Below, piece after piece: positions 11,116 through 31,875 of a stretch of 64,000 bases of DNA (the first letter of the stretch is position 1; the number at the start of each line of letters is the position of its first letter). The notes beneath the pieces were generated by a model, which made no database searches, had not been told where the DNA came from, and was given only the letters and a program-made list of their open reading frames with translations. The DNA is from an uncultured Anaeroplasmataceae bacterium (GTDB taxonomy: Bacteria; Bacillota_I; Bacilli_A; Acholeplasmatales; Anaeroplasmataceae). A program made the position numbers and the translations under genes. The stretch spans positions 310,001 through 374,000 of the forward strand of contig CALUYM010000001.1 of the NCBI GenBank assembly GCA_944325035.1. Reading direction: 5' to 3'.

Positions 11116-11140
11116 TCCTCACTATAAATGAGGATTTTTA
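11114..11140 (+). terminator. Terminator after the MATE gene
   Basis: AATCCTCA (11114-11121) pairs with TGAGGATT (11129-11136) and is followed by a T-run. Confidence 0.85.
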
Positions 11141-11205: not shown

Positions 11206-11235
11206 TTGACATCACTTTCAAGACTATTGTATAAT
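11206..11235 (+). promoter_or_regulatory. Promoter of the 24-kb envelope operon
   Basis: A perfect TTGACA (11206-11211) and perfect TATAAT (11230-11235) are 18 bases apart. It is the only good promoter I see before the nine long genes that end at 35,272. Transcription would start near 11,242. Confidence 0.75.
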
Positions 11236-11368: not shown

Positions 11369-12778
11369 ATGGTTGAGAATAAAAAAATCAAAGGTGTTGG
11401 ATTAAAAGTAACTTTTATTTTAGTCGTTACATTTTATATAAATCTAATGATTATTATGTTTAGAGAATCTAATTTATTGATTGAAGAATTAAAGATGATT
11501 TCTTTAATTTTATTATTAGTTTTAGATTTTTTTATATTTATATATATTATTTCGCTTGTTAAATCAAATAAAAAAAGATTTCGCTTTTCTGAAAACGATT
11601 TAAGAAAAATGGTCAGTACCCTACCTTGTCCTAATTATGAAGAAATAGTTCGTGAAGAAATTAAAAAAAATGATAAAGAGATTAAAATGGTAGATGCAAA
11701 AGAAGAAATTGATCATCAATTAGATACAGCTTTGGAACTTGCTAGTATGAATATGGAAGTTGATTTATCAAAATTAGAAGATGCTAATGATGAAGTCAAT
11801 TCATTAATTAGTTCTTCAGAATGGGATTTTACGTCTACATTTAATGAAATTGCAGAAAAATTAAACGATATTTTATTAACAAAAGGCTATAGAATTGAAA
11901 GGAAAAGTATTGTTACTTTTTTAAGTGCAATGTCAACTACAAAAGTTATTTTTCTAGATGGAGATAGTTTAGTTTCATCTTTATTTATTGAAGCTTTTAA
12001 TATTTTTATAGCATCAAGTATGACATATACAGAAATAAAACCAAAGTTTCATCATCCAATTGATTTATACTTTGAGGCTAGAGATAATAAACGGTATAAA
12101 TCAGAATTTATAAAGTCTTTATATTACGCATCAGATAATAAAGATGGAATTCATTTTGCAGTTTTAAATGATGTCTATTTACCACGAGCTGAGGAGTATT
12201 TAGCTGAGTTATTGCCAATTTTTGATAATCCGGTTGAAAAACATACAATTTTACTACGTACAAAAGACAAAAATATAAAATTAGATTTTTCTACAAATCT
12301 ATGGATTATTGGTATTTTAAAAGATAATAGTTCATTCGTTTCTAACCGTATTTTAATGAAAAATTCATGTGTTGTAAAAATAAAAGGTGAACTATGTGAA
12401 AAAGAGGATATAGATTTAGAAGAAACACAGATGTTATCTTTTGGACACTTTAACGAATTAATTCGAATAAATCGTGAAGAATTTTTATTAAGTGAAGAAA
12501 CATGGAAAAAAATTGATGATTTGAGCGACTTTTTAAAAACAAAGGAGCGAGTTGCATTAGGAAATAAAGAATATTGTTTAATAGAAGATTATATTTCAAC
12601 TTATGCTAGTATGGGTTATAGTCTAGAAGAAGCACTTGATTCTGTTTTAGCATTGCGAATCTTACCATTTATTTTATCAAATAACTTAGAAGAGGAACGT
12701 AGACATGAGTTACTTGAGATTTTAGACAAAATCTTAGGAGTTGATAATAATATTTTATCTTCAAAATTATTAAAGTAA
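11369..12778 (+). CDS. Membrane-anchored McrB-like pseudo-ATPase
   Basis: A 469-residue protein with two N-terminal membrane helices (about 11-31 and 41-63), a charged linker, and a cytosolic domain. The domain lines up with the AAA+ domain of the two downstream ATPases: the region before the Walker A (SIVTFLSAMSTTKVIFL versus DIRRFIAGLATTHIIIL), the Walker B region (IHFAVLNDVYLPRAEEYLAE versus IYITVLDEMNIARVEYYFAE) and the sensor strand (NLWIIGILKDNSSFVSNRI versus NMWFIGTANNDDSTFAISD). The Walker A GMSGTGKT is replaced by GDSLVSSL, and the Walker B LDE by LND, so nucleotide hydrolysis is unlikely. It is the first gene of the operon; AAGGAG precedes ATG 11369. A structural or regulatory partner of the active ATPases is my inference. 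Confidence 0.7.
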   Translation: MVENKKIKGVGLKVTFILVVTFYINLMIIMFRESNLLIEELKMISLILLLVLDFFIFIYIISLVKSNKKRFRFSENDLRKMVSTLPCPNYEEIVREEIKKNDKEIKMVDAKEEIDHQLDTALELASMNMEVDLSKLEDANDEVNSLISSSEWDFTSTFNEIAEKLNDILLTKGYRIERKSIVTFLSAMSTTKVIFLDGDSLVSSLFIEAFNIFIASSMTYTEIKPKFHHPIDLYFEARDNKRYKSEFIKSLYYASDNKDGIHFAVLNDVYLPRAEEYLAELLPIFDNPVEKHTILLRTKDKNIKLDFSTNLWIIGILKDNSSFVSNRILMKNSCVVKIKGELCEKEDIDLEETQMLSFGHFNELIRINREEFLLSEETWKKIDDLSDFLKTKERVALGNKEYCLIEDYISTYASMGYSLEEALDSVLALRILPFILSNNLEEERRHELLEILDKILGVDNNILSSKLLK

Positions 12779-12794: not shown

Positions 12795-14300
12795 ATGAAT
12801 TTGATACTTGCCACAGCTTTAAATTTCCTTGACATTGCTGGGATTTCAAAATCAGTGTGGGAATTTTTATCTAAGCCATTGATGATTATTATATATGTAT
12901 CTTTAATGGTATTTATGGTTATTTTGCTATGTTTACTAGTTATTACTAATGAGTATCGTAAACCTAACTATTATAAAACTAAAAAAATAGAAAATCCGGA
13001 TATTATAATTGGCGATATAGATTCATCGCAAGATAGTAAGAGAAAACGACATAAAGATAAAGCTGATTTTGTTGGTCAATCTGAGTTATTAGAAGATACA
13101 ATTGAAAAAGATTACCGAGAAGATGAAAATGACGATGATAATCAAATAAAAGCTGATAATTTATCTAAAAAAGAACTTTATATCTCTAATTCAATAAATC
13201 AAGAAGAAGTAAATCAGGATAAAACAAGATTTTATATGCTAAGTCAAATTGATAAAGAATATGAAGTTGAACATGATTTTAATTTTAATAATACATTAAG
13301 CTTACAAGAAATATGTAATATATTCAGAGATTTTTCTAGTTATAGACTTAATTTATATTATGATATATCAGATATTCGTCGTTTTATAGCAGGACTAGCA
13401 ACCACCCATATTATAATTTTGCAAGGTATGTCAGGAACTGGAAAAACATCTTTAGCCTATGCTTTTGGGGAGTTTTTAAATAATTCTACGACAATTTTAC
13501 CTATTCAGCCAATGTGGAAAGAAAGAACTGACTTAATTGGATATTACAACGAATTTACAAAGAAATTTAATGAAACAGTACTACTTCAAAAATTATATGA
13601 AGCAAATTATAATGATCAAATATATATTACAGTATTAGATGAGATGAATATAGCAAGAGTAGAGTATTATTTTGCGGAGTTTTTATCATTATTAGAAATA
13701 CCTAATTTAGAAGGAAGAATGCTAGATGTAATATCAGATGAATGGGAAAGTGACCCTAAATTATTAAAGAAAGGTCAATTACGTTTACCTGCAAATATGT
13801 GGTTCATTGGAACAGCGAATAACGATGATTCAACATTTGCGATATCAGATAAAGTATATGATAGAGCAATGGTAATAAATTTAGATACTAAGTGTTTACC
13901 GTTTGAGGCTAAAAAAACTAATTTTGAAGCAATAAGTGCAAGTTATTTAGAAGAGAAGTTTAAAGAAGCGGTAAAGAAATTTAGAATAACGACTAGAAAT
14001 TTAAACCGATTACAAAAATTAGATGAATATATGATTGAAAGGTTTCATATAACATTTGGGAATCGAATTATGAAGCAGATAAAGACATATGTACCAGTGT
14101 ATGTAGCTTGTGGTGGAGATGAAGTTGACGCCTTAGATGATATATTATCAAGAAAAGTATTTAGAAAGTTAGAAAGTCAAAACCCGGTGTATGTTAGAAG
14201 TGAAGCTAAAAAATTAGTTAATTTCATGGATGATTTATTTGGAACTGAGAATATGAAACTTTGTAAAGAAGTAATTTACAAAATAGAAAGAACTGTTTAG
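12795..14300 (+). CDS. Membrane-anchored McrB-type AAA+ ATPase, copy 1
   Basis: A 501-residue protein: one N-terminal membrane helix (about 28-51), a charged linker of some 110 residues, then a McrB/MoxR-type AAA+ domain with Walker A GMSGTGKT (about 211-218), Walker B ITVLDEMN (about 277), and sensor 1 in FIGTANNDDS. In McrBC systems such ATPases drive a nuclease partner; here the neighbour is a coiled-coil protein without a visible nuclease. I took ATG 12795, 11 bases after AGGAGG; TTG 12789 is the alternative. From base 13,128 the gene is identical to copy 2, while the membrane anchor and linker differ. The cytosolic side for the motor follows from the basic residues after the helix. Confidence 0.85.
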   Translation: MNLILATALNFLDIAGISKSVWEFLSKPLMIIIYVSLMVFMVILLCLLVITNEYRKPNYYKTKKIENPDIIIGDIDSSQDSKRKRHKDKADFVGQSELLEDTIEKDYREDENDDDNQIKADNLSKKELYISNSINQEEVNQDKTRFYMLSQIDKEYEVEHDFNFNNTLSLQEICNIFRDFSSYRLNLYYDISDIRRFIAGLATTHIIILQGMSGTGKTSLAYAFGEFLNNSTTILPIQPMWKERTDLIGYYNEFTKKFNETVLLQKLYEANYNDQIYITVLDEMNIARVEYYFAEFLSLLEIPNLEGRMLDVISDEWESDPKLLKKGQLRLPANMWFIGTANNDDSTFAISDKVYDRAMVINLDTKCLPFEAKKTNFEAISASYLEEKFKEAVKKFRITTRNLNRLQKLDEYMIERFHITFGNRIMKQIKTYVPVYVACGGDEVDALDDILSRKVFRKLESQNPVYVRSEAKKLVNFMDDLFGTENMKLCKEVIYKIERTV

Positions 14301-14306
14301 AAAGGA
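13128..14306 (+). repeat. 1,179-bp direct repeat, copy 1
   Basis: By eye this stretch is identical, base for base, to 16,544-17,722. It covers the end of the linker, the whole AAA+ domain, the stop codon and six bases beyond. The distance between copies is 3,416 bp. The identity includes silent positions, so recent duplication or gene conversion is needed to explain it. Confidence 0.9.
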
Positions 14307-14315
14307 TGGCCTTAG

Positions 14316-16154
14316 ATGAGAAAAGTTGATATTTTATACCGAAGTTATCTTAATTATCGCCATTTGACTGAGAAAAATTCGGATTTATTAAAAGAACGAA
14401 AAATATTTAAGGCTAATCATTCAGAACTTGATAGTTTAGAATCAAAACATTATAAGATTACAATTGACGCTGACTGGATAAAATTTATCGAATCAAAGTT
14501 AGATTATATTGAAAAAGCTATTAAAGAAGATAGACAATTTATTCTAACGAATGGTGAAGTAGTTCCAATTGAAAAAAATCGGCGTGTAAGTAGAGCATCG
14601 GTTGTTCATTTAGCAAAGCATAGTAATCTAATTAAGACAATACCACAAAATCCAAATGATACTTTAATTCCTGAAAAAATTTATCAAGAGGAAAAATTAA
14701 CAGATTATGCAGTTTATGAAAATCGTTTTTTGTATATGCTTTTAGTAAATTTAAAGGAATTCGTCCAGCTGAGACTTGATAAAATTGCTGAAATTAGCAA
14801 AACCTTTGAAACTAAAATTCAAATGGATAAAAAAATAAGTATAAGTGAACGTGAAATTAATTTTAAATTAACGTATGATGAATTAAATTTAGAAAATATT
14901 GAAGAAGCACTTGATGAAACAAGTAAGGAATTATTCATTCGCATTGAAGATGTAATGGTAAGAGTGAATAGTTTTTTAAAAACAGATTTAATGATTGAAG
15001 TTTCAAAAGCTCCGATTATTAAACCGCCACTTATAAAAACGAATGTCTTAAAGATGAATCAAAACTTTAAACGTTGTGTCGAATTATATGATTTTATTTC
15101 AGCATTTAATGAAGATGGCTTTTCAAAACAAGAGATTTATACGCGTTTTAATCCGTTTAGCGATAAAGTTGCGGATAATGTTTTAGAACTTATTTCACTT
15201 ACTTCATTTTTTGGTTTGAGATATGGATCAAACATTGAAGAAAACCTAAAAGCTGAATACGAGAAAGAAGAAGAAAGAATTCGTCAAGAAAAAGCTAAAG
15301 AACACCTATTGAAACTAAAACAATTAAAACGTGTATTACAAGAATCTAAGACTTCATTAGAAGAATACTTATTGGCTTTAGAAGAAAGAAATAAATTCTT
15401 AGAAGCTCAAGTCCTTAAACTTAAGACACTAGTTAATGAAAAAGATTTAAAAATTCAAGAATTAAATGACAGTATTATTACCTTAAAAAAAGAAATTACA
15501 AGTCTTACTCTCCAAATTGAGGAATTAACATTCGTTATAAAACAAAAGGATGAAGAGATTGTAAAACTTAAACTTGAATATGAACAGGCTATAAAAAAAT
15601 TGGTTTTAGAGTATGATAATAAACTTGAAAAACAAAAAAATGATTTTGAAGAAAATCTCATTAATCTTGAAAATCGTAATAAAGAAGTTCTTCAAAGCCT
15701 GGAAAGCGAATGCGAAAGTAAGATTAAAATAATCATTGAATCATATGAAGATAGAATTTCTATGATGAAAGATGACATCAATAATCTTAAATTAACATAT
15801 GAAAATGATATGAATCTTCAAACAGTTGAGAGTAGTAAGAAGTTCGAAAATTTAGCTCAAGAATTTGATTTGTTTAAAGAGAGTGTTAATCAAGATAATA
15901 GATCTTTAAAACAAAAAATAGATGAGATAACAAAAAAATATAATGATTTAAAGAAGGAAAATGATTTAGCTTCAGCCCAAATTCATGGCCTTCGATACAA
16001 TCAAGGGTTAATCAAAGAAAATGAGGATTATACTTCAAAAGATGCGTTTTTAAAGCTTGAAGCTGAGTATGATGCTTTTACGAAGTTCTATAAAGCTCAG
16101 TGGAAGAAAACAAAAAAAAGGATTAAAGAAGATATTTTAAAAAATAAAAAGTAA
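14316..16154 (+). CDS. Coiled-coil protein, DUF2357-like N-terminal region
   Basis: A 612-residue soluble protein. The first 300 residues are mixed alpha/beta and contain IYQEEKLTDYAVYENRFLYM, which resembles the ENRF-type motif of DUF2357 proteins, known partners of McrB-like ATPases. From about 305 to 560 it is a long, highly charged coiled coil (repeated E/K/L heptads such as LEERNKFLEAQVLKLKTL). I see no PD-(D/E)XK nuclease motif, so it would not be a restriction nuclease. It lies between the two ATPase genes, 15 bases after the first. ATG 14316 follows AAAGGA. I infer a cytosolic scaffold or adaptor for the AAA+ proteins. The DUF2357 link is tentative. Confidence 0.6.
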   Translation: MRKVDILYRSYLNYRHLTEKNSDLLKERKIFKANHSELDSLESKHYKITIDADWIKFIESKLDYIEKAIKEDRQFILTNGEVVPIEKNRRVSRASVVHLAKHSNLIKTIPQNPNDTLIPEKIYQEEKLTDYAVYENRFLYMLLVNLKEFVQLRLDKIAEISKTFETKIQMDKKISISEREINFKLTYDELNLENIEEALDETSKELFIRIEDVMVRVNSFLKTDLMIEVSKAPIIKPPLIKTNVLKMNQNFKRCVELYDFISAFNEDGFSKQEIYTRFNPFSDKVADNVLELISLTSFFGLRYGSNIEENLKAEYEKEEERIRQEKAKEHLLKLKQLKRVLQESKTSLEEYLLALEERNKFLEAQVLKLKTLVNEKDLKIQELNDSIITLKKEITSLTLQIEELTFVIKQKDEEIVKLKLEYEQAIKKLVLEYDNKLEKQKNDFEENLINLENRNKEVLQSLESECESKIKIIIESYEDRISMMKDDINNLKLTYENDMNLQTVESSKKFENLAQEFDLFKESVNQDNRSLKQKIDEITKKYNDLKKENDLASAQIHGLRYNQGLIKENEDYTSKDAFLKLEAEYDAFTKFYKAQWKKTKKRIKEDILKNKK

Positions 16155-16171
16155 TGAAAGGAGATTTGGTG

Positions 16172-17716
16172 ATGAAAAGTAGAAGGCAAATTAAAATAGC
16201 ACTGGTTTGTTTATTTTTAGTTATGAGTTTAGTAGCTGTTTTATTACTAGGTTCATTAATTTATCGTTATCTAAATGGTGACTTTTCATCTACCACTCTT
16301 TTAAAGTCAGAAACGACTTATGTCATCATGTTTGCTGGATTATTAGCGTTTATAATTCTTTTATTACTGATAATTAATGCTGCTAAAGCTGTTGATATTT
16401 ATATTCCAGAAGTTAATTTAGATATTGATAAAGAATTAAGTATATCAAGATTTCAAGGTAATGATGTTATAGAAGAATCACAATCAACCAGATTAGAAAC
16501 TTACGAAAATTCATTATTGGAAAAAGATTATAAAGAAGATGAGAATGACGATGATAATCAAATAAAAGCTGATAATTTATCTAAAAAAGAACTTTATATC
16601 TCTAATTCAATAAATCAAGAAGAAGTAAATCAGGATAAAACAAGATTTTATATGCTAAGTCAAATTGATAAAGAATATGAAGTTGAACATGATTTTAATT
16701 TTAATAATACATTAAGCTTACAAGAAATATGTAATATATTCAGAGATTTTTCTAGTTATAGACTTAATTTATATTATGATATATCAGATATTCGTCGTTT
16801 TATAGCAGGACTAGCAACCACCCATATTATAATTTTGCAAGGTATGTCAGGAACTGGAAAAACATCTTTAGCCTATGCTTTTGGGGAGTTTTTAAATAAT
16901 TCTACGACAATTTTACCTATTCAGCCAATGTGGAAAGAAAGAACTGACTTAATTGGATATTACAACGAATTTACAAAGAAATTTAATGAAACAGTACTAC
17001 TTCAAAAATTATATGAAGCAAATTATAATGATCAAATATATATTACAGTATTAGATGAGATGAATATAGCAAGAGTAGAGTATTATTTTGCGGAGTTTTT
17101 ATCATTATTAGAAATACCTAATTTAGAAGGAAGAATGCTAGATGTAATATCAGATGAATGGGAAAGTGACCCTAAATTATTAAAGAAAGGTCAATTACGT
17201 TTACCTGCAAATATGTGGTTCATTGGAACAGCGAATAACGATGATTCAACATTTGCGATATCAGATAAAGTATATGATAGAGCAATGGTAATAAATTTAG
17301 ATACTAAGTGTTTACCGTTTGAGGCTAAAAAAACTAATTTTGAAGCAATAAGTGCAAGTTATTTAGAAGAGAAGTTTAAAGAAGCGGTAAAGAAATTTAG
17401 AATAACGACTAGAAATTTAAACCGATTACAAAAATTAGATGAATATATGATTGAAAGGTTTCATATAACATTTGGGAATCGAATTATGAAGCAGATAAAG
17501 ACATATGTACCAGTGTATGTAGCTTGTGGTGGAGATGAAGTTGACGCCTTAGATGATATATTATCAAGAAAAGTATTTAGAAAGTTAGAAAGTCAAAACC
17601 CGGTGTATGTTAGAAGTGAAGCTAAAAAATTAGTTAATTTCATGGATGATTTATTTGGAACTGAGAATATGAAACTTTGTAAAGAAGTAATTTACAAAAT
17701 AGAAAGAACTGTTTAG
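16172..17716 (+). CDS. Membrane-anchored McrB-type AAA+ ATPase, copy 2
   Basis: A 514-residue protein whose last 391 residues are identical to those of copy 1, including Walker A GMSGTGKT (about 224-231), Walker B VLDEMN and the TANNDDS sensor. Its N-terminus is unrelated: two membrane helices (about 8-30 and 50-71) instead of one, then a different linker until DENDDDNQIKADN. ATG 16172 has AAAGGAG eight bases before it; an upstream ATG at 16154 overlaps that site and is less likely. It follows the coiled-coil gene by overlap of the region and precedes the first giant repeat protein. Two motors with one engine and different anchors could form a mixed hexamer. Confidence 0.85.
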   Translation: MKSRRQIKIALVCLFLVMSLVAVLLLGSLIYRYLNGDFSSTTLLKSETTYVIMFAGLLAFIILLLLIINAAKAVDIYIPEVNLDIDKELSISRFQGNDVIEESQSTRLETYENSLLEKDYKEDENDDDNQIKADNLSKKELYISNSINQEEVNQDKTRFYMLSQIDKEYEVEHDFNFNNTLSLQEICNIFRDFSSYRLNLYYDISDIRRFIAGLATTHIIILQGMSGTGKTSLAYAFGEFLNNSTTILPIQPMWKERTDLIGYYNEFTKKFNETVLLQKLYEANYNDQIYITVLDEMNIARVEYYFAEFLSLLEIPNLEGRMLDVISDEWESDPKLLKKGQLRLPANMWFIGTANNDDSTFAISDKVYDRAMVINLDTKCLPFEAKKTNFEAISASYLEEKFKEAVKKFRITTRNLNRLQKLDEYMIERFHITFGNRIMKQIKTYVPVYVACGGDEVDALDDILSRKVFRKLESQNPVYVRSEAKKLVNFMDDLFGTENMKLCKEVIYKIERTV

Positions 17717-17722
17717 AAAGGA
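16544..17722 (+). repeat. 1,179-bp direct repeat, copy 2
   Basis: This is the second copy of the repeat at 13,128-14,306. Just outside, the two copies differ at once (A versus G at 13,127/16,543; TGGCC versus GTTAA after the repeat). Recombination between the copies would delete the coiled-coil gene and fuse the ATPase genes. Confidence 0.9.
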
Positions 17723-17733
17723 GTTAATATAAC

Positions 17734-20700
17734 ATGGTTAAAAGAAATAAACTAATGTTTGCTTTATCTTGTTTTTTAATGAGTCTAATTGCATTAATCG
17801 GAGTCTACTTTGTTTTAGCCGCAGTTGGTTGTATTGGCTACCGAACTAATCATATAAAGATAATTTCAACAAGTTCTGAAAAAACTTATGATGGAACTGA
17901 ATTGGTAAGCAATGACTATAAAATGGTAGGTGAACTGGGTTTTGGTGCTACATTGGATATTGATTTTACTGGTTCGCAATTAAATGCAGGTACATCAGAC
18001 AATACTTTTCAAGTAAAAGTACGTGATGCAAATGGGATAGACATTTCATCAGATTATGAAATTGAAACTGTTTTTGGAAAATTAAAGGTAAATCCTATCA
18101 CAATTGGTATTGAAGCGAAAAGCGCTGAGAAATTATATGATGGTGTTGCTTTAGAAGCTAATGAATATACAGTTACTCAAGGTGCTCCAATTGAAGGTGA
18201 TAGAATTGAAGCAGTTGTAATTGGTTCAATTACTGATATTGGTGTAATTGAAAATAAGGTAACTGCCAGGGTTGTTAATGAAGTTGGAGAAGATGTGTCT
18301 AGTAATTATAATTTAGTTTTAACTAATGGTAAACTAACAGTACTTGCATCAAGACTTAGTGTTCAAACTCAAACTATTTCTAAATATTATGATGGAACAC
18401 CATTAGTTACTGATCCTAAGACTGATTGGCAGATAACAAGCGGACAACTTTTAAAAGGACATTATACTGAAGTTTACATGAATGCTAAAATTACGAATGT
18501 AGGTGAAGTATCAAACACTTTAGTATTTTATATTAAAGATGAAAATGGAAATGATGTTACTAATTTATATGAAATTAATTACTCATATGGGAAATTAATA
18601 GTCGAAGCTTCTCCACTTGTAATTCAATGTGGTAGTGATAAAAAAATTTACGATGCCACCCCTTTTAGTGTTGAAGATTATACAATTATTAGTGGAAATT
18701 TAGCTGAAAATAATCAGGTAGTTGTTACAAATGCTCCAAGAGGGATAAATGTAGATGAATATATTAATGATTTGCAATTTCGAGTTGTTGATTCATATGG
18801 TAATGATATTTCTAGAAATTATCAGATCAAAGTGTTACCTGGGATGTTTGAAATTTTGCCAAGAATAATTAAAATTAAGACAAACGATGCGACTAAAATC
18901 TATGATGGATATGCTTTAACTGTTGATGACTATGAATTACTTGAAAATTCGATGACTTTAATTGATGGTCACCAATTAGTTTATATTAATGATGTTTTTG
19001 TAGACGTTGGAAAGTATGAAAACATATTCAAATCAATAAAGATTTATGATGGACAAACTGATGTAAGTTCAAATTATGAGTTTTATTTTGAAAGTGGGTT
19101 AATTTCAATTTTACCAAGAGATATCGAGTTAACTATTCTAAAAGGTGAGAAAGTGTTTGATTATAAACCTTTTTACTATACTGATTATCAAATAACTGGT
19201 GGAATGACTTTAGAAGGTATTTTGAGTAAAACATTTTTTAAAGTTGATGAAGAAAAAAGCGATAAAATAATCAAAGCTGGATATTATAATGCGAGTGATT
19301 ACTTCCTTTTTAAAGCATATTTAGGTGATCAAGATATTACGTCTAACTTTAATATTATTTTAAAAGACGTTGAAACTAATAACGTTTATATAAGTCCATA
19401 CCAACTTACTATCAAAACACCTAGCGTGACTAAGGTATTTGATAATAAACCGTTTAATATTTCAGAAGTTGAAATTGTTTCAGGTCGTGAGTTTATTCGA
19501 GATATTGGTGCGAATGTTACTATGAACCCGCATGAAAATATTATTTATGCAGGTACATATTTTAATAGTCTTACTACTTTGAATATTAATATAAATGGCG
19601 TTGATTATTCAAAAAGCTTTGAAGTATCTGAAATAGTAGAAATGGGAACATTAACTATAACTCCTTACGAATTTACAGTTATTACTCCTAATATTACACA
19701 TGAATTTGATACCGAAAATCATTATACAGTTAATGTAGATGAACTTGTTTTACCAGAATTTATTACTAGTAATGAAAATAGATTTAACTTGTTTGTATTT
19801 AAAGTTGATAGTGCAGGTAATAAAGAAGATACAACATCATTTATAAAATTTGATAATACGATGGTAGGTACTCATACAAATCGAATATCTTTAGTAATAA
19901 GAGATACAAATTTTAATGATATTAGTTCGTCTTTTTATATTAATTATGTATATGGTTCAGTCACAATTACTAAAGCTAATATTTTAGTAACACAAACAAA
20001 AGATATCAATTCAATATATACTGGTACATCAGAATTAATGCCAAAAGAAGATTTTAAAATCACTGATAAAGATGGTTATGAAATTATTTGGCTAAATACG
20101 TTAGAGTACCAAATTATTTCTACTAATACTAATCTTAATGTAGGAAAACGCTTAAATAAGGTTGAGTTAACAGATGTTTATATAAATTTTGGCGGTTATA
20201 AAATTCCCACTGATTATATTTTAAATATTTCATATAATTATGGATATATTGAAATAATTCCAAGAAAACTTATTGTATCTCAATTAGAAGATTATGTGAC
20301 ATATTTTGATGGAAATGTTAAAAAAGTACCTAATAGATTATATGAAGTAAAAGATGGATCAAGTTCAAATAATACTTGGTTAAATGAATATTTAAAAAAT
20401 AATACAATAATATTTAATCAAAGAAATGATATCTTAAATGCTTATAATTATATAAATAATTTTAATATAACTATATCTAATGGAGAAAATGACTTAACAG
20501 CTAACTTTGAGATAAGTTATAATTATAGAAACATCATTGTGATGCCTAGAACTATTAATGTATCTCAAGTATCAGAAATTGCCAAAACATATGATGGAAC
20601 AATGGTTAAAACTACGATAAATGATTTAACAATATTACCACTAATACAGCCGGATGATATAGTATCAAAAGATGAAATTATGGATATCTTAACTAATTAT

Positions 20701-22404
20701 TACAATTATGAAATAATTCAAATCGCAACATTAGTTAATTTTGGCTCAATGGATAATAAATTTAGAATTGATTTAAGCGTAAAAGATGAGACATCTATCT
20801 ATTCAAATTCTAATTTTTTAATGAAATATGATTTTAAAGAAATTAGAATTTATAAACGAATTTTGAATGTTTATCAGAAAAGCGATTTAGAATTAATTTA
20901 TAATGGTGAAGCACAAGGCTTAACTAATTCAATGTTTAATGATTATGTTGGAATTTTGTGTAAAACGGAATTTTTAAATTATTTAAACAATAATGTTACA
21001 TTTAAAATAATTAATGCATTAAAAAAAATTGATGTAATCAATACTGAAAACAGTTTTGAATTAAGCATTTACGACAGTACAGGAGAAATAACGGATAATT
21101 TCATCCTTAAATACGAATATTTAAAATTAATTATCAAGCCTATTGAAGTATCTGTTGAAGTTTTACAAAAAACAGATATCGAATACGATGGACAATCTCA
21201 CCAATTTAAATTATCTGATGTAATTGTTGATTCTTCAAATATAATTAAGAAAGATTTAAATAGATTTAGTTTAAATCTAATTAGTTCTCAAAGTGCAATT
21301 ACGCCAGGAATCCATAATTTGCGTGTAAGAGTTGAACCCCAAATTGATTCAATTTATACAGAAAATTATATAATTAAGGAAACAAGTGGAACATTTACAA
21401 TTAAACCACGTTTTATACTAATTACGTCAATGGGTAAACAAGCCTACTTTGATCCTAATAAAGAACTTTATAACAAGGATTTCTATATTGCTAAAGAAAC
21501 TCCATTAATTTCTGGACATGAGATTAAGGTAGTAGAATTTACACGTCTTTCAACTATTGGCAGTGTTCGCAACATTTTGACGTTTATAATAACTGAAAAC
21601 GGAAAAAATGTGAGTGATTATTATGAAATAATGCAAATATCACAGGAACTTGTTTATTTAAAAAATAAAACATCATATTTTATTGCACCAGAAAGATATA
21701 TTGTTGATTATAGTTCATTAGGCGATTCTAAAGTTGCCTATGCCAATGGTGCTAATATAGAATTAGTCGGATTAGATTTAGAAGAGTTTGAAGGATGCAC
21801 TTATAAAGTTATATATTCCGGCCAAGCAACTTTAGGTAACTCTGGAATAATCAAAATTGAGGAATTTCATCTTTATAATAAATTAGGTGAGGAAATAACT
21901 TATGATTATGATTTTATTTTTGGAGAAAATATAATTCAAGTTGTAAATTTTGATGCGACTGTAACTACGTTAAATCATACTAAAGAATATGATGGAACCC
22001 CATTAAGTGGGTCAATAACTGATGTAATAGTATCACCACTGACGGAAGGATATTTCTACGAAGTTTCAGAGATAGCTGGAAGTATTACTATGCCAGGTAT
22101 TACTGCTAATACAGTTAAGATTGATATTTATTATTTAAATGATAATAATGAAAAAGTATATGTTACAAATCAGTTTAGAATTACATATAATTACGGAACT
22201 TTAAAAGTAGACCGACGCAATTTTACAATCATTGTAACAACTAATGGCGATATACTAACTGATGGTTTGCTTGACAGTCATAAGGATTTAATAGAGTTCA
22301 TCTATTCAGATGATGCTGGTACAATCACAGTTCAAGGATTTTATTTTACTGATACTAATATTTCAAAACTATATGTAACAAATCCAAAATATGTTTATGA
22401 ATAA
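17734..22404 (+). CDS. Giant MBG (YDG) repeat surface protein 1
   Basis: A 1,556-residue protein with an N-terminal membrane anchor (about 7-34, no clear cleavage site) and then some 15 tandem modules of about 80-110 residues. Each module carries a K-x-YDG-x-x-L type motif (KTYDGTEL, KLYDGVAL, KYYDGTPL, KIYDGYAL, KEYDGTPL; degenerate forms such as KVFDNKPF in the middle), a GxLxxGH-like turn, and an ending of the form DVTxNYxIxYxxGxLxI. These are MBG/YDG domains, immunoglobulin-like folds of bacterial surface fibres. No LPXTG motif or C-terminal membrane helix is seen, so it would be a type II membrane protein with the repeats outside. AAAGGAG precedes ATG 17734. Confidence 0.8.
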   Translation: MVKRNKLMFALSCFLMSLIALIGVYFVLAAVGCIGYRTNHIKIISTSSEKTYDGTELVSNDYKMVGELGFGATLDIDFTGSQLNAGTSDNTFQVKVRDANGIDISSDYEIETVFGKLKVNPITIGIEAKSAEKLYDGVALEANEYTVTQGAPIEGDRIEAVVIGSITDIGVIENKVTARVVNEVGEDVSSNYNLVLTNGKLTVLASRLSVQTQTISKYYDGTPLVTDPKTDWQITSGQLLKGHYTEVYMNAKITNVGEVSNTLVFYIKDENGNDVTNLYEINYSYGKLIVEASPLVIQCGSDKKIYDATPFSVEDYTIISGNLAENNQVVVTNAPRGINVDEYINDLQFRVVDSYGNDISRNYQIKVLPGMFEILPRIIKIKTNDATKIYDGYALTVDDYELLENSMTLIDGHQLVYINDVFVDVGKYENIFKSIKIYDGQTDVSSNYEFYFESGLISILPRDIELTILKGEKVFDYKPFYYTDYQITGGMTLEGILSKTFFKVDEEKSDKIIKAGYYNASDYFLFKAYLGDQDITSNFNIILKDVETNNVYISPYQLTIKTPSVTKVFDNKPFNISEVEIVSGREFIRDIGANVTMNPHENIIYAGTYFNSLTTLNININGVDYSKSFEVSEIVEMGTLTITPYEFTVITPNITHEFDTENHYTVNVDELVLPEFITSNENRFNLFVFKVDSAGNKEDTTSFIKFDNTMVGTHTNRISLVIRDTNFNDISSSFYINYVYGSVTITKANILVTQTKDINSIYTGTSELMPKEDFKITDKDGYEIIWLNTLEYQIISTNTNLNVGKRLNKVELTDVYINFGGYKIPTDYILNISYNYGYIEIIPRKLIVSQLEDYVTYFDGNVKKVPNRLYEVKDGSSSNNTWLNEYLKNNTIIFNQRNDILNAYNYINNFNITISNGENDLTANFEISYNYRNIIVMPRTINVSQVSEIAKTYDGTMVKTTINDLTILPLIQPDDIVSKDEIMDILTNYYNYEIIQIATLVNFGSMDNKFRIDLSVKDETSIYSNSNFLMKYDFKEIRIYKRILNVYQKSDLELIYNGEAQGLTNSMFNDYVGILCKTEFLNYLNNNVTFKIINALKKIDVINTENSFELSIYDSTGEITDNFILKYEYLKLIIKPIEVSVEVLQKTDIEYDGQSHQFKLSDVIVDSSNIIKKDLNRFSLNLISSQSAITPGIHNLRVRVEPQIDSIYTENYIIKETSGTFTIKPRFILITSMGKQAYFDPNKELYNKDFYIAKETPLISGHEIKVVEFTRLSTIGSVRNILTFIITENGKNVSDYYEIMQISQELVYLKNKTSYFIAPERYIVDYSSLGDSKVAYANGANIELVGLDLEEFEGCTYKVIYSGQATLGNSGIIKIEEFHLYNKLGEEITYDYDFIFGENIIQVVNFDATVTTLNHTKEYDGTPLSGSITDVIVSPLTEGYFYEVSEIAGSITMPGITANTVKIDIYYLNDNNEKVYVTNQFRITYNYGTLKVDRRNFTIIVTTNGDILTDGLLDSHKDLIEFIYSDDAGTITVQGFYFTDTNISKLYVTNPKYVYE

Positions 22405-22433: not shown

Positions 22434-25400
22434 ATGATAAGTTATAAAAAATATGAAGAAAAAATGCGAAAAATTGCAAAAGTACGTCATACCATTTATC
22501 GACTTCGTCTTTTAATTGGCAGTATGATTTTGTTAGTCATTGCACTAATAGTATCTTTTTTGTCAACTAAAGGGATTATCATTAAAGGTCTGGAATGCCC
22601 TTTAGAAATTACGTATGGAGATGACTATTTATATACAGCTAAAGCATTATTTTCTGATGTAAGTTATGAATTTAGACCAAAGGGAAGAAGTGAGTGGAGT
22701 GATGAAAAGCCGTATTTACCAGGAGAATATGAGATGCGCGCTATTTCTAATCGTTTTTTTGGTGCTAAAGGCTATTCAGATATTCAAGTTTTTTCCATTT
22801 TACCAAAAGATATTGAAATCAAAGTTAAGGATTCAAAAATAACATATGGTGATGAACCATCATTAACAGCTGATTTAGTTGGAAATGATAGAATCGCTGA
22901 AGTTGAGTTTAATTATGAAAACATTGAATTAACATCTACTGTTGTAAATCCCATTGATAGTTCAATTGTAATTGTTGATGAAACTGGACGAGATGTAACT
23001 AAAGCATATGACATTAAAACGGTTAAAAGCGATATAACCTTTTTAAAACGTAATTTAACTTTACAAATAAATTCAGAAACTAAAATATATGATGGTAAAG
23101 AACTTAATGCCAAAGATTATACAATTGTAGATGGTAGTTTTGGTTTTTCAGATACTATTAACATCGATTTTTCTACGGGAATAAGTAGTGTTGGTAATAC
23201 CATTGTAAAAAGTAAAAATGCTATAATCAAAAATTATGATAAAGATGTTACAAACCATTATAATTTAACTATTTTAGAGGGAAACTTAGAAATTACAAAA
23301 CGTCCTCTTACTATAACTACTGCAAGCGAAAAGAAGGTTTATGATGGTTTACCACTCACAAATAGTGAGATTAATTTATCGCAAAATGGATTAGTCGCTG
23401 GTCATCATATCGAAAAGATTAAAACAACTAGTATCGTAAATGCAATTTGTGCTAAAAATCAAGTTGAGGAAATTCAAATCTTAGATGAAGCTGGTAATGA
23501 TGTTACAGAAAATTATGATATAAATTATGAATATGGATTGCTTGAAATTGAAAAAAGAAAAATCACCTTAGAATCATTTAGCAAAACTAAGGTATATGAT
23601 GGTTTAAAACTAAGTAATAATTTATATCAAATTAATTCTGGTTCATTAGCTGATGGAGATAAACTTAGTGTATCTTTAGAATCTTCCATTATAAATGTAG
23701 AAAAAACAACTAACCAATTTAGTGATGTTCTAATTACTAATTTTGCAGGTGATAATGTTACAGCTAATTATAACATTAACTATATTGAAGGAACATTAGA
23801 GATTTTACCAAGAAGAATTTCTTTAAGTGGACTAGATCATATTTTTGTCTATAATGGTTTAGAACAAAAAGCTTCAGGCTATCAAATTAACTCGGGAAGT
23901 TTAGTTCCAATGCAGACTCTTAATGTAACAATTTCAGGTAGTTTAATTAAAGTTGGTCAAATACCAACATCATTTGAAAGCATTGTCATCAAAGATGAAT
24001 ATGGAAATGATGTTACAGCTAATTATGAAATTGACGAAGTAGTTGGAAGTATTACTATTTTAAAGCGAAAGATTAGTATAAAACCAATTGATTTGGAAAT
24101 TTATTATACTGGTTATGAAATAATGACATCACATTATGAATTTACAGACGCCTCTTTATATCAATTAGCATATGGTGATTTTTTAACAGATGTGACAACA
24201 AGCAAATCATTGGTCGATGCTGGTAATTACTTCAATCAAATTATTTCGTGTAAAATATATAATATTAATAAAGAAGATGTAACGGATTGTTATGAAATTG
24301 ATATGTCAAGTGAAGCTCGCTTGAATATCAAACGTCGTCCAATTATAATTATACCTGAATCTAAAAATAAGGTTTATGATGGAGTTAATTTAGTTACAGA
24401 TCAAATTATTATCACAGATGAATCTCGTTTTAATCTTGCAAGTACTGATTTTTTTAGTGATGTAAGACTTAATAATTCAAGAATTTTGAATGCAGGTAGC
24501 ATTGATGTCACGATTGCAAACTATGTAATTGTTAATAGTGAAGGAAAAGATGTAACAAATAACTACGAAATTACAGAAAAAATTGGTAAACTAACAATAA
24601 CTCCACGTCCAATTACAATTAAACCAATTGATGTTAGCAAAGTTTATGATGGACAAACTTTAGGAACTAATAATATAGTTCTTTCTAATAAAAGTAGCTA
24701 TAGTTTAATTCCTGGTGATGCAATTTACGGTTTAACAACTAAAGTCATCACTTATGTAGGAAAAAGTTTAAATAGTATTTCTAAAAAGTCTGTTATAATT
24801 ACGAATTCAACAGGAGATATAACCTCTAATTATGAAATAACATATGAAGATGGTTATTTGGAAATTTTGCCAAGAAATATATCAATAAAACCAATTGATA
24901 AAAGTAAAGTGTATGATGGAACTAATTTAGAAATTTTAGCAGATAATGGTTTTGAATATCTTAGTTCAACTCGATATTTTCTAGCTATAGGCGATGAATT
25001 AAATGCTACTTATAATGGCTTTCAACGATATGTTGGTTCTACAAATATTTCATTTGAAACCATTCAAATTCAAAATAGTGAAAATATAGATGTAACTGAT
25101 TGCTATATAATAGACAAAGAAGATGGTATTTTAACTATTTATGAAAGAAGTATTTCGATAAAACCTGAAGATGTCGTTAAGGTATATGACGGAATTGCTT
25201 TGACTTCAAATAAAGCAGTGCTTGCTGAGAATTCTAGATATGATCTTGCGATTAAAGACAGAGTTGAAATTACTACTAATGGAAGTGTAGTAAATGCGAC
25301 TGAAACTGAATACTTGGATAATGCCGTTATAAACGAAATAGTTGATTATAAAATTTTAAATAGTGAAGGTTTAGATGTTACATATTGTTATAATGTTGAT

Positions 25401-28400
25401 GTGAATATTGGCTATTTATCTGTATTAAGAAGAGAAATAAGTATAAGTCCACAAATAGCATCTAAAGTCTATGATGGTACTTTCTTAACATCAAATAAAG
25501 TAGTTTTATTAAAAGATTCTAAGTATCAATTAGTATCAAACCATGAAATTGAAATTATAACTAATGGCAAAGTAAAGTATGTAAGTGATGGTAGGGTTAA
25601 AAATCAAATAGAATCATTTATTATATATAATAATAATCAAGAAGATGTAAGTTATAATTACAAAGTTAATACAGTCGATTCTAGTCTAGAAATTCTAGCA
25701 CGAAAATTATCGATTAAACCGATGGATATAAATAAGGTATATGACGGATTTTCTTCATCAGTTACAAGTGTTGATTATTTGAATAACACTATGCTAGCTT
25801 ATGAAGATGTTATTAAATTTGAGCTATTAAACTACAATAATTTCAAAAATGTATCAGATTCAACTGATAATAATACAATATCAAATGTTCAAATTTTTAA
25901 TACTGATGGTATTGATGTAACTAGTTCATATGAAATTGACTTAAATCCTGGATGCGTAATAATTAGTAAACGCAAAATTGCAATTCAACCACAAAATGTG
26001 ACAAGAGTATATGATGGCGATGAATTTATTCAAACCAAGGGAGTTCTTGTAAATTCAACTTTAGGTAAAGGCGATAATTTGAGCATTACCTCAGAAACAT
26101 TAAAAGATAACACACATGGCGTAATACAGTATAATGTTATACATCATGAAATTTATGATAATTATTTAGTTAATACTACAAATAATTATGAAGTAACATA
26201 TTTAAAAGGCGAAATTAATATTTTACCAAGACCAATTACGATTAAACCAATTGATATTGAACATGAGTATGATGGTACTATTTTTAAATATAATCTTAAT
26301 ACAGTTGAAGTTTTAGATAATAGTTATGGACTAGTTAAAACTCATAGTCTATTAGTAAATAGTGTTTTGGGGTCAATTGTAAATGTTGGTATTACTAAAT
26401 CTACTATAAATTCAGTTTCAATCTATCAAGATGAGATTAATGTAACAGATAATTACGACATTACCTTTATAGATGGCACTTTAACAGTTTTAAAACGACA
26501 AATCACCATTAATCTAAATGACCTTGAAAAAGTTTATGACGGAACAAATCGAATAGATCTAAATGATGCTTATACATTGTCAAAAGAACTTGCGCCAAAT
26601 GATAAAATATCGTTAAATATTTTAAGTGACAACTCAACCATCGGAACACATGTGACTAGAGTATTAACAGCTTTTGTCTTTAAAGACAATAACGATGTTA
26701 CAAATAACTATGATTTATCATTTACAAATGGAAGTATAAAAATTAATAAACGAGATCTTGTAGTTAGTCCAGTTAATGCAACCAAAGTTTATGATGGTCA
26801 ACCATTAGGAATTACTGAAGTTATTGTAAATGGCTTAGTGGAAAATCATGAATTTATCTTTACTTCAAATACAATTACAAATGTAGGAAGTGTTGATTTT
26901 TTAGTGCAATCTTACGATATTTTGGCCAAAAATGGAAAATCATTGCTAGAAAATTATAATGTTAGATTTGAAAAAGCCTTAATATCTGTAAAAAAACGCG
27001 AAATTAACGTTGAATTTAGGTCAGAATTTGAATATGATGGAACAAATCATCACATTGAACATTACTATTTTACGAATGAAACTTATCTTGCTAAAGGTGA
27101 TATCTTTACTTTTAGTACAAATAATAGTCAAATGAAACCAGGAACGTATTATTTTGATATAGCAAATTATCAAATTTTCAACAGTTATGGATATGATGTA
27201 ACTAATAATTATATCATTAATAAAGAAACAGGTTGTTTAGTAATAAATAAACGGAAAGTTACAGTTCAAATTCTTGATAAACAAAAGGTATATGATGGTA
27301 TGCCGCTTACTTCAAATGAATATGAGGTTATATTGGGTTCTTTAGTAACTGGAGATATATTAGAAGTAATGACTAATGGTTCGATTGTTTATTATCAAGA
27401 AGGTGGAATAATAAATGATTATTTAAGTCACAAAATATATGATTTAAATAATCAAGAAGTTTCAACATATTATGAAATAGAATTTATTTCAGGTAAATTA
27501 AATATTATAAAACGTGATATTACTATCAAAACATCATCGGCCAACTTCGTATATAATACAAACTTCCATTCTAGTGATGACTATGAAATAGTATCTGGGA
27601 ATTTAGTATTGAAAGATATTATTAAAGTGCAATCGAAGTTTTTTAAAGATGTACAAATAATAAATGGAAAAGTTGTTGGATATGATAATACTTTAAGTGT
27701 ATTAATTTATAACGATAGTATTGATGTAACAAGTTCTTATAACATAACTTATGAATATGGCATTGTAACAATTGAACAGTATACTGTATATTATAAAACA
27801 CCTTCTAACTCAATAATGTATGATATAAATAATCCGATTTTTACTAGTTTTACAATTGCTGGAGATGAAGCGAATAGTTATTTAAACACTGATAAATTAA
27901 TTATAAAATCTAAATCTTTAGCTAATTCAAAAGATAAACTAGGTATTGTTCAAAATATTCAAGAACTTTCAGTTGATTCAAATAACTATCAATTTGAGTG
28001 TCTTTCTATAGGACAAATCCGTGTTAGTTTATCAATAACATATAAATCTAAAGATTTAATGGGAGAGTATAATGGACAAGCATATCAATGCTTAGAACTT
28101 GGTACTATATCTTATACGGATACATTTGGTGGTCAGATTAGATTTGAATTAAATCAAAGTGAATCTAAAAAATACATTAATGCTGGTGTGTATAATAATG
28201 AACAATCTCTTATCTTTAAATATGAAAATAAAGATGTGACCGATTTTATAGTTGTTAAAAATGATTATGGAAAAATCACGATAACAACTCGAGAAATTAC
28301 AATCCAAACAGCATCAGCTAAAATGGAGTATAATGGTCAAGCTCTAACTACAAAACATGAAAATGTCGTAGTAAAAACAATCTTAGGTCATATAGTTAAA

Positions 28401-31170: not shown

Positions 31171-31875
31171 ATGACAACGTATCGGATTTTAGCTATTGTG
31201 GCAATAGTCCTTGTTTTAGTTATCGGTTTAATCCGCTTTAAACTAAAGCTATTTAAAAAAGTCTATGTCTTTAATTACATAAAACCGTCAGCTAAGAAAA
31301 TTGTCAAAGATAGTGGAATGATGTCAATCATTTATGAACCTAATAAAGAGACTAGACGTTTTATTAGCGAATACTCCTTAAGTAAAATTAATAAAAGAAA
31401 ATTTTTTCTAGCTAAATATCAAAAAATATATAAACAAATCATTTATTTTATTTATGTTTATGATCGTAATAACAAGCTGATTAAATTAATTGAGGTTAAA
31501 GATGCTAAACGTAATTCAACATCACAAATGATAAAACTTCCTAAAAAAACAAAGTCTGTAAATGTCTATTTAAAAAGTGTCAATAATGAAGTTTATAACA
31601 TGTATGCTATAAGACCGATAACAAAACTTCGTTTATTTGCGGCTTCAATAATGTCTAGTCTACAAGTCTTTTTAATAGTTTTTGCTTTAAGGAATTTAAT
31701 ACTAGAGTTTTATAATCCAATTCAAGTTGAATCATTTTTAAAATCAGATCTAAATTTAACAACGATAATTTACGTATTTTTATTAACAATTGTCTTTTTT
31801 ATTAGCTACTTTTTAATAGCCTTAATCTTAAATGGTAATTTTAGAAAGAAAGGAGGAACTTTATATGATTTCTAA
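31171..31875 (+). CDS. Three-helix membrane protein of unknown function
   Basis: A 234-residue protein with one helix at the N-terminus (about 4-22), a basic soluble middle of some 130 residues that looks beta-rich (KLIKLIEVKDAKRNSTSQM), and two helices near the C-terminus (about 158-178 and 197-221). I do not recognise the family. GAAAGGA precedes ATG 31171. Its last 11 bases overlap the start of the next gene, so the two are translationally coupled. It appears to be a dedicated component of the operon. Confidence 0.6.
   Translation: MTTYRILAIVAIVLVLVIGLIRFKLKLFKKVYVFNYIKPSAKKIVKDSGMMSIIYEPNKETRRFISEYSLSKINKRKFFLAKYQKIYKQIIYFIYVYDRNNKLIKLIEVKDAKRNSTSQMIKLPKKTKSVNVYLKSVNNEVYNMYAIRPITKLRLFAASIMSSLQVFLIVFALRNLILEFYNPIQVESFLKSDLNLTTIIYVFLLTIVFFISYFLIALILNGNFRKKGGTLYDF

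What the first reader, a model, noticed from the sequence alone, without database searches (positions are those of the whole stretch)
13128..17722. Two AAA+ genes share a perfect 1,179-bp repeat but have unrelated membrane anchors
Seen: 13,128-14,306 and 16,544-17,722 look identical at every base, silent positions included, while the N-terminal parts (one helix versus two) and linkers are unrelated. Either a recent partial duplication or ongoing gene conversion holds the motor domains equal. This fits subunits that must fit one ring but sit in different places. The repeat also allows deletion of the 3.4-kb piece with the coiled-coil gene, a possible on/off switch.
Basis: seen in the sequence. 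Interest (0 to 1): 0.75.

Follow-up and report, generated by a model that had tools for sequence, protein, structure and literature searches.

The report
Twin motor genes kept identical
Two neighbouring bacterial genes carry the same motor domain behind different membrane anchors, and DNA copying between them has kept the motors alike in many related species, in a little-known operon derived from a DNA-defence system that also encodes giant surface proteins.

Summary
The cause is recurrent, domain-limited gene conversion. The same order, A (one-TM anchor + motor), coiled-coil gene, B (two-TM anchor + motor), occurs in 46 non-redundant complete loci of Mollicutes-related Bacilli and gut Clostridia. 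Motor pairs are bimodal: 25 of 46 are 94-100% identical, 21 of 46 are 61-79%. In the 24 homogenised pairs the nearest motor is the partner in the same genome (48 of 48 copies), while 87 of 88 anchors group by position. Between a Haloplasma MAG and a close relative, motor sites show 60 concerted against 0 orthologous patterns. The motor is McrB-like; the gene between is McrC-like (DUF2357) with a coiled coil and no detected nuclease; the upstream gene is a McrB-like fold without a P-loop; giant YDG/MBG-type surface proteins follow. I read it as a CoCoPALM-like membrane GTPase machine acting on surface proteins (function inferred). Identity is not required: one clostridial lineage let A and B diverge. 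The on/off-switch idea is not supported. Exactness in draft assemblies may be inflated by repeat collapse, but not the near-identity.

The parts
11206..11235 (+). Promoter-like site (12 of 12 match, 18-nt spacer) at the head of the operon
   Evidence: consensus match only, and the region as a whole holds no more such sites than shuffles (41 found, mean 46.9). A terminator-like hairpin after the preceding gene lies at 11114-11136 (1 found, mean 1.0)
11369..12778 (+). U: McrB-like pseudo-NTPase (469 aa), P-loop lost, hydrophobic N-terminus
   Evidence: matches the motor HMM at 4.4e-24 with no Walker A; motif alignment; model (pLDDT 74.4, pTM 0.66) has McrB 6hz4_D as best Foldseek match, E 1.3e-7, TM-scores 0.29/0.46; hydrophobic N-terminus read
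12795..14300 (+). A: one-TM anchor, linker and McrB-like AAA+ motor
   Evidence: ORF from 12789; AAA_5 4.9e-7; main TM at ORF residues 33-51; start chosen from the RBS
13128..14306 (+). Repeat copy 1 (1,179 bp, exact)
14316..16154 (+). C: McrC-like protein, DUF2357 N-terminal part plus long coiled coil, no nuclease detected
   Evidence: DUF2357 27.4 bits against a cut-off of 23.3 at window 14538-14858; 11 of 26 homologues match, this one not in that scan; model with helices 308-344, 349-562 and 575-610; best Foldseek match McrC 6hz4_M, weak, E 0.024
16172..17716 (+). B: two-TM anchor, linker and the same motor
   Evidence: ORF from 16154; TMs at ORF residues 15-33 and 56-74; start chosen from the RBS
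16544..17722 (+). Repeat copy 2 (1,179 bp, exact)
17734..22404 (+). S1: giant surface protein (1,556 aa), N-terminal TM, YDG/MBG-type repeats
   Evidence: YDG weak and under the cut-off here (0.0022) but 1e-16 in homologue L038:11670-14513
22434..29756 (+). S2: giant surface protein (2,440 aa) with a conserved N-terminal tail before its TM
   Evidence: tail found downstream in 38 of 44 loci, 12 of which seeded the profile
29780..31144 (+). Protein of 454 aa with hydrophobic stretches, probably same operon
   Evidence: no Pfam match; homologue in L037
31171..31875 (+). Protein of 234 aa with hydrophobic stretches, probably same operon
   Evidence: homologue in L037; not scanned against Pfam
31832..35272 (+). 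BspA-type LRR surface protein (1,146 aa), probably same operon
   Evidence: LRR_5 7e-30; homologue in L037

Best explanation
A and B are old paralogues with different, position-specific membrane anchors. Recurrent gene conversion between direct repeats about 3 kb apart repeatedly overwrites one motor with the other. It stops where homology stops, so the motors evolve in concert while the anchors do not (shown by comparison; the recombination itself is inferred). The operon is a McrBC-derived, CoCoPALM-like membrane machine: a P-loop-less McrB-like subunit (U), two McrB-like subunits with intact Walker motifs and one or two TM helices (A, B), and a McrC-like DUF2357 activator whose nuclease is replaced by a coiled coil (C). 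Most likely A and B share a cytosolic GTPase ring or rings under the membrane. C docks there as McrC does and passes nucleotide-driven motion through its coiled coil to the membrane and to the tails of the giant surface proteins S1 and S2, to assemble, anchor or move them. My odds are about 0.9 for recurrent conversion, 0.85 for McrBC descent, 0.5 for action on the surface proteins and 0.4 for a mixed A+B ring.
For: Exact repeat. A-C-B order in 44 non-redundant loci with both motors complete, plus G214 and G237. Bimodal identity: 24 of 44 at 94.0-100%, 20 of 44 at 61-79%, none between; G214 98.8% in a 3.2-Mb contig and G237 74.6% (BLASTN). G063, a one-contig genome of 1,554,229 bp, is identical over 1,095 motor nt. 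Motor tree: 23 of 24 homogenised pairs form a pair of their own; L075 is unresolved beside its sister L083. Own partner nearest for 48 of 48 copies. Anchors: A one TM in 43 of 44 (the exception is the window's own A, by a weak second peak), B two TM in 42 of 44; leave-one-locus-out profiles place 87 of 88. Site patterns, concerted/orthologous/crossed: G214-G205 60/0/0, L075-L083 60/3/4, L102-L103 148/0/0, L072-L075 154/1/0, L072-L083 144/1/1, L070-L071 257/0/0, L072-L078 224/0/0. In 21 pairs of at least 98%, mismatches per tenth of the motor are 160, 13, 2, 1, 1, 0, 2, 1, 3, 34; L075 and L083 are mosaics. Descent: PDB hits of the motor profile at E up to 0.001 are McrB only (3 sequences, best 4e-6); DUF2357 over cut-off; U model matches McrB first. 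Surface link: first downstream gene has an N-terminal hydrophobic segment in 44 of 44, S2 tail in 38 of 44.
Against: No reads were available. Short-read assemblers can collapse near-identical copies and make them exactly identical. The 44 loci come from similarity-ranked searches, so 24 of 44 is not a prevalence. 20 of those 44 pairs have diverged, so identity is dispensable; two diverged B copies (L109, L119) have even lost the N-N-D motif. A-B dN/dS (0.031, 0.037, 0.041 in L083, L075, L087) lies within the orthologue range, so nothing here shows selection for equal motors. Diverged loci tend to higher G+C (0.28-0.64 against 0.27-0.53), a difference I cannot separate from ancestry. The McrC structural match is weak (E 0.024, none of 241 matches at E up to 0.001) and only 11 of 26 members hit DUF2357 in the per-protein scan. 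The surface-protein link is by gene neighbourhood only. One anchor (L042 A) was misplaced and L124 A was placed by 0.1 bit.
Confidence: 0.8

Rival explanations
1. One recent partial duplication in the window's lineage: a motor was copied recently behind a second anchor.
For: Within the window alone an exact repeat would look just like this.
Against: The A-C-B order with the same two anchor types is present in loci across Bacilli and Clostridia (44; two more). Mismatches gather at the tract edges and mosaics exist. Independent duplications behind the same two orthologous anchors in each lineage would be needed.
Confidence: 0.03
2. Assembly artefact: two diverged motors were collapsed or copied by the assembler.
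For: Most named loci are draft MAGs (titles). Contigs often end in the repeat: L048 and L043 ends share exact stretches of 141 and 86 nt; G016, G001, G036 and G008 break there. This can turn 99% into 100%.
Against: It cannot turn 61-79% identity into 94-99% with mismatches retained. A one-contig genome (G063) and a 3.2-Mb contig (G214, 98.8%) show the same. Species differ while copies within a species agree.
Confidence: 0.04
3. Strong purifying selection, not DNA transfer, keeps the two motors alike because they share one ring.
For: In L083, 63 nt differences leave the 365-residue motor core unchanged; over a slightly longer stretch one search counts 8 non-synonymous changes.
Against: Fourfold sites are 100% identical in 10 of 24 homogenised pairs. 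A-B dN/dS in partly converted pairs is within the range of orthologues. Motors diverged in 20 of 44 loci.
Confidence: 0.03
4. The repeat is a recombination switch: loop-out of C and B turns the machine off or changes its anchor.
For: Direct repeats make deletion possible. In L101 and L112 A is followed directly by a large surface-like gene. No C gene was found in the genomes of L089, L101 and L112 at E up to 1e-10. L013 shows C-B-C, the duplication or circle junction.
Against: All three loci without C and B come from one MAG series (titles with RGIG) whose only complete A-C-B locus among mine is a diverged pair, L124. L013 is a 3,008-bp contig. Either form can arise by graph traversal of an exact repeat.
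Confidence: 0.08
5. The operon is an anti-phage defence system like other McrBC relatives, the surface proteins being sensors or a barrier.
For: McrBC descent. PADLOC candidate family PDC-M26A matches A at 5.2e-47, B at 8.2e-47 and U at 1.3e-7.
Against: No nuclease or other effector family was found in C, its homologues or the operon proteins scanned. PDC-M26A is only a candidate family and one search found no paper in the library that names it. I noticed no other defence gene among the ORFs around the operon, read by eye, without a dedicated scan.
Confidence: 0.25

Closest known systems
CoCoPALM systems (named in Bell et al. 2024, PMC11090510; abstract, passages and section 7 read)
   Same: McrB-like NTPase fused to membrane and coiled-coil parts, McrC homologue with coiled coils, link to surface or pilus proteins; the N-N-D followed by D or E (86 of 88 motors) fits their NxD motif
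   Different: Two McrB-like copies with one-TM and two-TM anchors, an extra P-loop-less copy, giant YDG/MBG proteins, no signal peptidase in the operon. The paralogue on contig C3 (L051), with a weak S26 peptidase match, is nearer the CoCoPALM description.
E. coli McrBC (PDB 6hz4, 6ut6)
   Same: Motor profile matches only McrB in the PDB at E up to 0.001; C carries DUF2357
   Different: Membrane anchors instead of a DNA-binding domain; no nuclease detected
Long-lasting concerted evolution in prokaryotes (tuf, ftsH, psbA/psbD, mtrA; PMC6053082: abstract, passages and section 8 read)
   Same: Paralogues closer within than between species, silent sites included; mtrA is also a tandem pair with gene fusion and domain shuffling
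   Different: Here homogenisation is limited to one domain behind two unrelated anchors, and it was lost in one lineage; McrB-like genes do not appear in the parts I read
Salmonella tufA/tufB gene conversion (PMC5485169, passages read)
   Same: Repeat of about 1.18 kb; conversion is modelled to fall off towards the ends of the homology, as the edge mismatches do here
   Different: tuf copies are whole genes 762 kb apart; these are domains about 3 kb apart in one operon

Membership tests
McrB-like GTPase (A and B) | Walker A and Walker B | tested here: met
   Walker A in 44 of 44 A and 44 of 44 B; LDE(M/L/V)N in 88 of 88 rows of the motif alignment
McrB-like GTPase (A and B) | Closest solved relatives are McrB | tested here: met
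   3 of 3 PDB sequences with E up to 0.001 are McrB. NCBIfam gave only sub-cut-off hits (EccA, SpoVK, GvpN; McrB 3.6e-5 for L042 B)
McrB-like GTPase (A and B) | NxxD or NxD signature | tested here: inconclusive
   N-N-D followed by D or E in 86 of 88 motors, absent in L109 B and L119 B; the ungapped HMM alignment to McrB does not decide NxD against NxxD
McrB-like GTPase (A and B) | GTP hydrolysis | not testable with these tools
   needs protein
McrBC restriction system | McrC with DUF2357 | tested here: met
   27.4 bits against cut-off 23.3; 11 of 26 homologues at E up to 0.01
McrBC restriction system | PD-(D/E)xK nuclease in McrC | tested here: not met
   no such family among the 11 listed for 26 members at E up to 0.01; model almost wholly helical after residue 283
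McrBC restriction system | N-terminal DNA-binding domain on McrB | tested here: not met
   TM anchors instead; Pfam found no DNA-binding domain in A or B
CoCoPALM | Membrane-fused McrB-like NTPase and coiled-coil McrC homologue | tested here: met
CoCoPALM | Membrane domain homologous to FtsB | not tested
   no FtsB profile was run against the anchors specifically; the Pfam scan of whole A and B listed none
CoCoPALM | Associated signal peptidase | tested here: not met
   in this genome S26 hits lie only at C1:242129 and, under the cut-off, C3:130649, neither in this operon; not tested in the other loci
CoCoNuT | Associated HEPN or other nuclease | tested here: not met
   none among the eight of nine operon proteins scanned with Pfam (the 234-aa protein was not scanned)
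Concerted evolution by gene conversion | Paralogues closer within than between genomes while flanks are orthologous | tested here: met

The most novel reading that the evidence does not exclude
A membrane-bound GTPase machine, made of a P-loop-less subunit, two interchangeable motor subunits kept identical by gene conversion but anchored differently, and a coiled-coil McrC-like lever, drives or assembles giant surface fibres in Mollicutes-related and gut Firmicutes. It would be a restriction system turned into a surface motor, in which conversion maintains a mixed ring.
Probability: 0.3. Interest if true: 0.85.

Novelty: new variant of a known kind. Interest (0 to 1): 0.62.

Why it matters
Long-lasting concerted evolution is rare in prokaryotes (26 genes in the survey PMC6053082). 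Here it is confined to one domain of two genes with different anchors, and it has natural on and off lineages, so one can ask what keeps paralogues equal and what happens when conversion stops. It also points to an uncharacterised McrBC-derived membrane operon, found in many uncultured gut bacteria and in a cultured Anaeroplasma and Haloplasma relatives, tied to giant surface proteins.

Tried and rejected
Recent duplication, pure purifying selection and pure assembly artefact were considered and rejected (see rivals). The switch idea was tested by looking for deletion and junction forms: three loci without C and B and one C-B-C contig were found, none decisive. Selection for equal motors was tested by dN/dS and not found; of the seven A-B pairs computed there, L083, L075, L087, L084, L072 and L092 give about 0.03-0.08, and L039 gives 0.85, with its few differences lying mostly at the eroded 5' edge; orthologue values came only from nine clostridial loci, mostly with saturated dS. 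Plasmids: no match. The first leave-one-out anchor test is void: it returned no real score (every value was the script's default; I blame clashing hmmsearch options); it was repeated with other options. No test with shuffled labels was run. The tract-edge listing covers 21 of 24 homogenised pairs; L075, L083 and L087 could not be placed by its method. Literature: searches for McrBC+DUF2357+coiled-coil, DUF2357, CoCoPALM, McrB+transmembrane+gene conversion+Bacillota, and PDC-M26 listed no paper whose title or abstract start describes a two-motor, homogenised form; of those I opened only PMC11090510. Early in the work I called the 454-aa gene 'DUF975' from its look (label used inside); Pfam gave no match, so the name is dropped.

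Rows dropped before the counts: 15 loci that are the same contigs as others (L065, L066, L067, L074, L081, L088, L090, L095, L097, L106, L116, L121, L127, L129, L130; judged by equal contig length and gene coordinates) and all loci with a truncated motor. Of the truncated ones, one search gives L117 99.8% over 972 nt, L077 94.9% over 963, L111 98.0% over 408, L091 93.6% over 267, L126 96.9% over 131, L098 78.9% over 956. L166, L168 and L169 repeat the contigs of L085, L093 and L091 (contig lengths; L168 against L093 also by alignment) and were not counted again.
Full report
OBSERVATION. The two stretches are identical at all 1,179 bases and cannot be extended; they start 3,416 bp apart. They lie in two ORFs with different N-termini around a 612-aa gene. 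A short diverged stretch of homology before the repeat (EKDYRED against EKDYKED) looks like an eroded tract edge. In the whole genome (1,550,282 bases, 10 contigs) the only other matches are a 40% identical paralogue on C3 and the 21% identical upstream gene.

RELATIVES. A family-wide search (45 of 55 genomes with a match at E up to 1e-20, single-copy paralogues included), an order-wide search (23 of 160 at E up to 1e-110), a class sample (20 of 395 at E up to 1e-120) and one scan of named genomes (192 relatives found, best 80 kept as 69 loci) gave loci from Anaeroplasmataceae and relatives, Haloplasma, and many uncultured gut Clostridia. Forty-four non-redundant loci hold A, C and B with both motors complete. 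Two more came from the class sample: G214 and G237.

TWO REGIMES. Over the motor core, 24 of 44 pairs are 94.0-100% identical (8 exactly so, including the one-contig genome G063) and 20 of 44 are 61-79%, with nothing between. G214 (contig of 3,195,757 bp, genome in 2 contigs) has 98.8% over 1,104 nt and G237 74.6%, both by BLASTN. In the motor tree (quick search, LG+G4) 23 of 24 homogenised pairs sit together genome by genome; the two L075 copies are unresolved beside their sister L083. Sixteen clostridial loci instead form one A clade (support 96) and one B clade (support 83) with similar branching, so there homogenisation stopped and the copies diverged; of the other four diverged pairs, L124 and L128 pair by genome and L041 and L042 are unresolved. 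For the homogenised pairs, the nearest of all 87 other motors is the partner in the same genome for 48 of 48 copies; for the diverged pairs for 7 of 40.

ANCHORS. By a hydropathy window, A has one predicted TM segment in 43 of 44 loci (the exception is the window's own A, which has a weak second peak) and B two in 42 of 44. Profiles built without the tested locus assign 87 of 88 anchors to the right position; L042 A fails and L124 A passes by 0.1 bit. So anchors are orthologous by position while motors are not.

CONVERSION SIGNATURES. Four-sequence site patterns between species (concerted, orthologous, crossed): G214-G205 60, 0, 0; L075-L083 60, 3, 4; L102-L103 148, 0, 0; L072-L075 154, 1, 0; L072-L083 144, 1, 1; L070-L071 257, 0, 0; L072-L078 224, 0, 0 (these are all seven comparisons run). 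In the 21 pairs of at least 98% identity, mismatches per tenth of the motor are 160, 13, 2, 1, 1, 0, 2, 1, 3, 34, and L075 and L083 are mosaics of identical and diverged blocks. Diverged pairs also vary along the motor and are most diverged at its ends, so constraint may add to the edge effect. Tract ends vary between species (21 of 24 pairs measured). Edge erosion fits the drop of conversion near the ends of homology modelled for the Salmonella tuf genes (PMC5485169, passages).

SELECTION. In partly converted pairs the A-B dN/dS is 0.031 (L083), 0.037 (L075) and 0.041 (L087). Orthologues with measurable dS give about 0.02-0.11, with dS mostly near saturation. Nothing shows extra pressure for equality; ordinary constraint plus conversion is enough.

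WHAT THE PROTEINS ARE. The motor profile matches only McrB in the PDB at E up to 0.001 (best 4e-6), and both copies keep Walker A in 44 of 44 loci. N-N-D followed by D or E is kept in 86 of 88 motors. C carries DUF2357 (27.4 bits, cut-off 23.3; 11 of 26 homologues). Its model is a mixed head followed by long helices (mean pLDDT 79.7, pTM 0.47), and its best but weak structural matches include McrC (6hz4_M E 0.024, 6ut6_G E 0.35; nothing at E up to 0.001). The upstream gene U matches the motor HMM at 4.4e-24; an AAA-like upstream gene is found in 29 of 44 loci, none of the 29 with a Walker A. U's model matches McrB first (E 1.3e-7) among many AAA+ folds. Downstream, the first gene of at least 250 aa has an N-terminal hydrophobic segment in 44 of 44 loci, and a gene with the conserved S2 tail is found in 38 of 44, 12 of which seeded the profile. 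The YDG domain is recognised by Pfam over its cut-off in one relative's S1 (L038) and under it in the window and L042. A full-match promoter-like site precedes U, after a terminator-like hairpin.

MECHANISM. Shown: homogenised motors, orthologous anchors, McrB/McrC-type parts and a conserved operon order. Inferred: a membrane-bound GTPase ring or rings of A and B with U as an inactive partner; C as activator and lever; S1 and S2 as the objects moved, assembled or anchored. Gene conversion needs only homologous repeats in one operon. Loss of C and B by the same recombination would be the cost, and the order has nevertheless survived in many lineages.

KNOWN WORK. Bell et al. 2024 (PMC11090510; abstract, passages and section 7 read) named CoCoPALM systems: McrB-like GTPases fused to membrane and coiled-coil parts, tied to signal peptidases, to be described elsewhere. 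This operon resembles them but has two motors with different anchors, an inactive copy, giant surface proteins and no signal peptidase in the operon. Concerted evolution over long times is documented for 26 prokaryotic genes, including tuf, ftsH and mtrA (PMC6053082, abstract, passages and section 8).

LIMITS. No reads could be examined. Exact identity in draft assemblies can be an artefact of repeat collapse; near-identity cannot. Loci were found by similarity to the window's motor, so proportions are not prevalences. Function rests on descent and neighbourhood.

Noticed in passing
L051:8487-12170 (G000 contig C3): A second AAA + DUF2357 pair in the same genome, beside repeated 'YAWF' surface-like proteins and a weak S26 signal-peptidase match: close to the published CoCoPALM description.
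   Followed up: partly
L052:9046-13271 and L053:8533-12734: A third type in sister genomes: an AAA protein of about 880 aa followed by a C-like protein.
   Followed up: no
L101:7297-19456, L112:6531-15863, L089:644-3706: A-type gene without C and B (in L101 and L112 directly followed by large surface-like genes); all three come from one MAG series, so a real deletion or a collapsed repeat.
   Followed up: partly
L013:1-3008: C-B-C arrangement on a 3,008-bp contig: the junction expected from a tandem duplication or an excised circle, or a misassembly.
   Followed up: partly
window:12789-14300: PADLOC candidate defence family PDC-M26A matches the motor gene at 5.2e-47 and the upstream gene at 1.3e-7.
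   Followed up: partly
L165:5555-20000 (G214): A close relative of a Haloplasma MAG carries the cassette with a 1,676-aa S1; possible link to that genus's contractile protrusions (recalled from general knowledge, from no call).
   Followed up: no
L109:12719-14122 and L119:8935-10905: In these two diverged loci the B motor has lost the N-N-D motif that the other 86 of 88 motors keep: B may be losing its enzyme role where conversion has stopped.
   Followed up: no
window:36129-38680: Two neighbouring genes that look by eye like sugar kinases (342 and 347 aa) flank a 162-aa gene; another paralogue pair in which to look for conversion.
   Followed up: no
L021-L036 and others: Many family members show only one match, to a paralogue about 39-47% identical to the window motor with ORFs of about 510-540 aa, not the two-motor cassette.
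   Followed up: no
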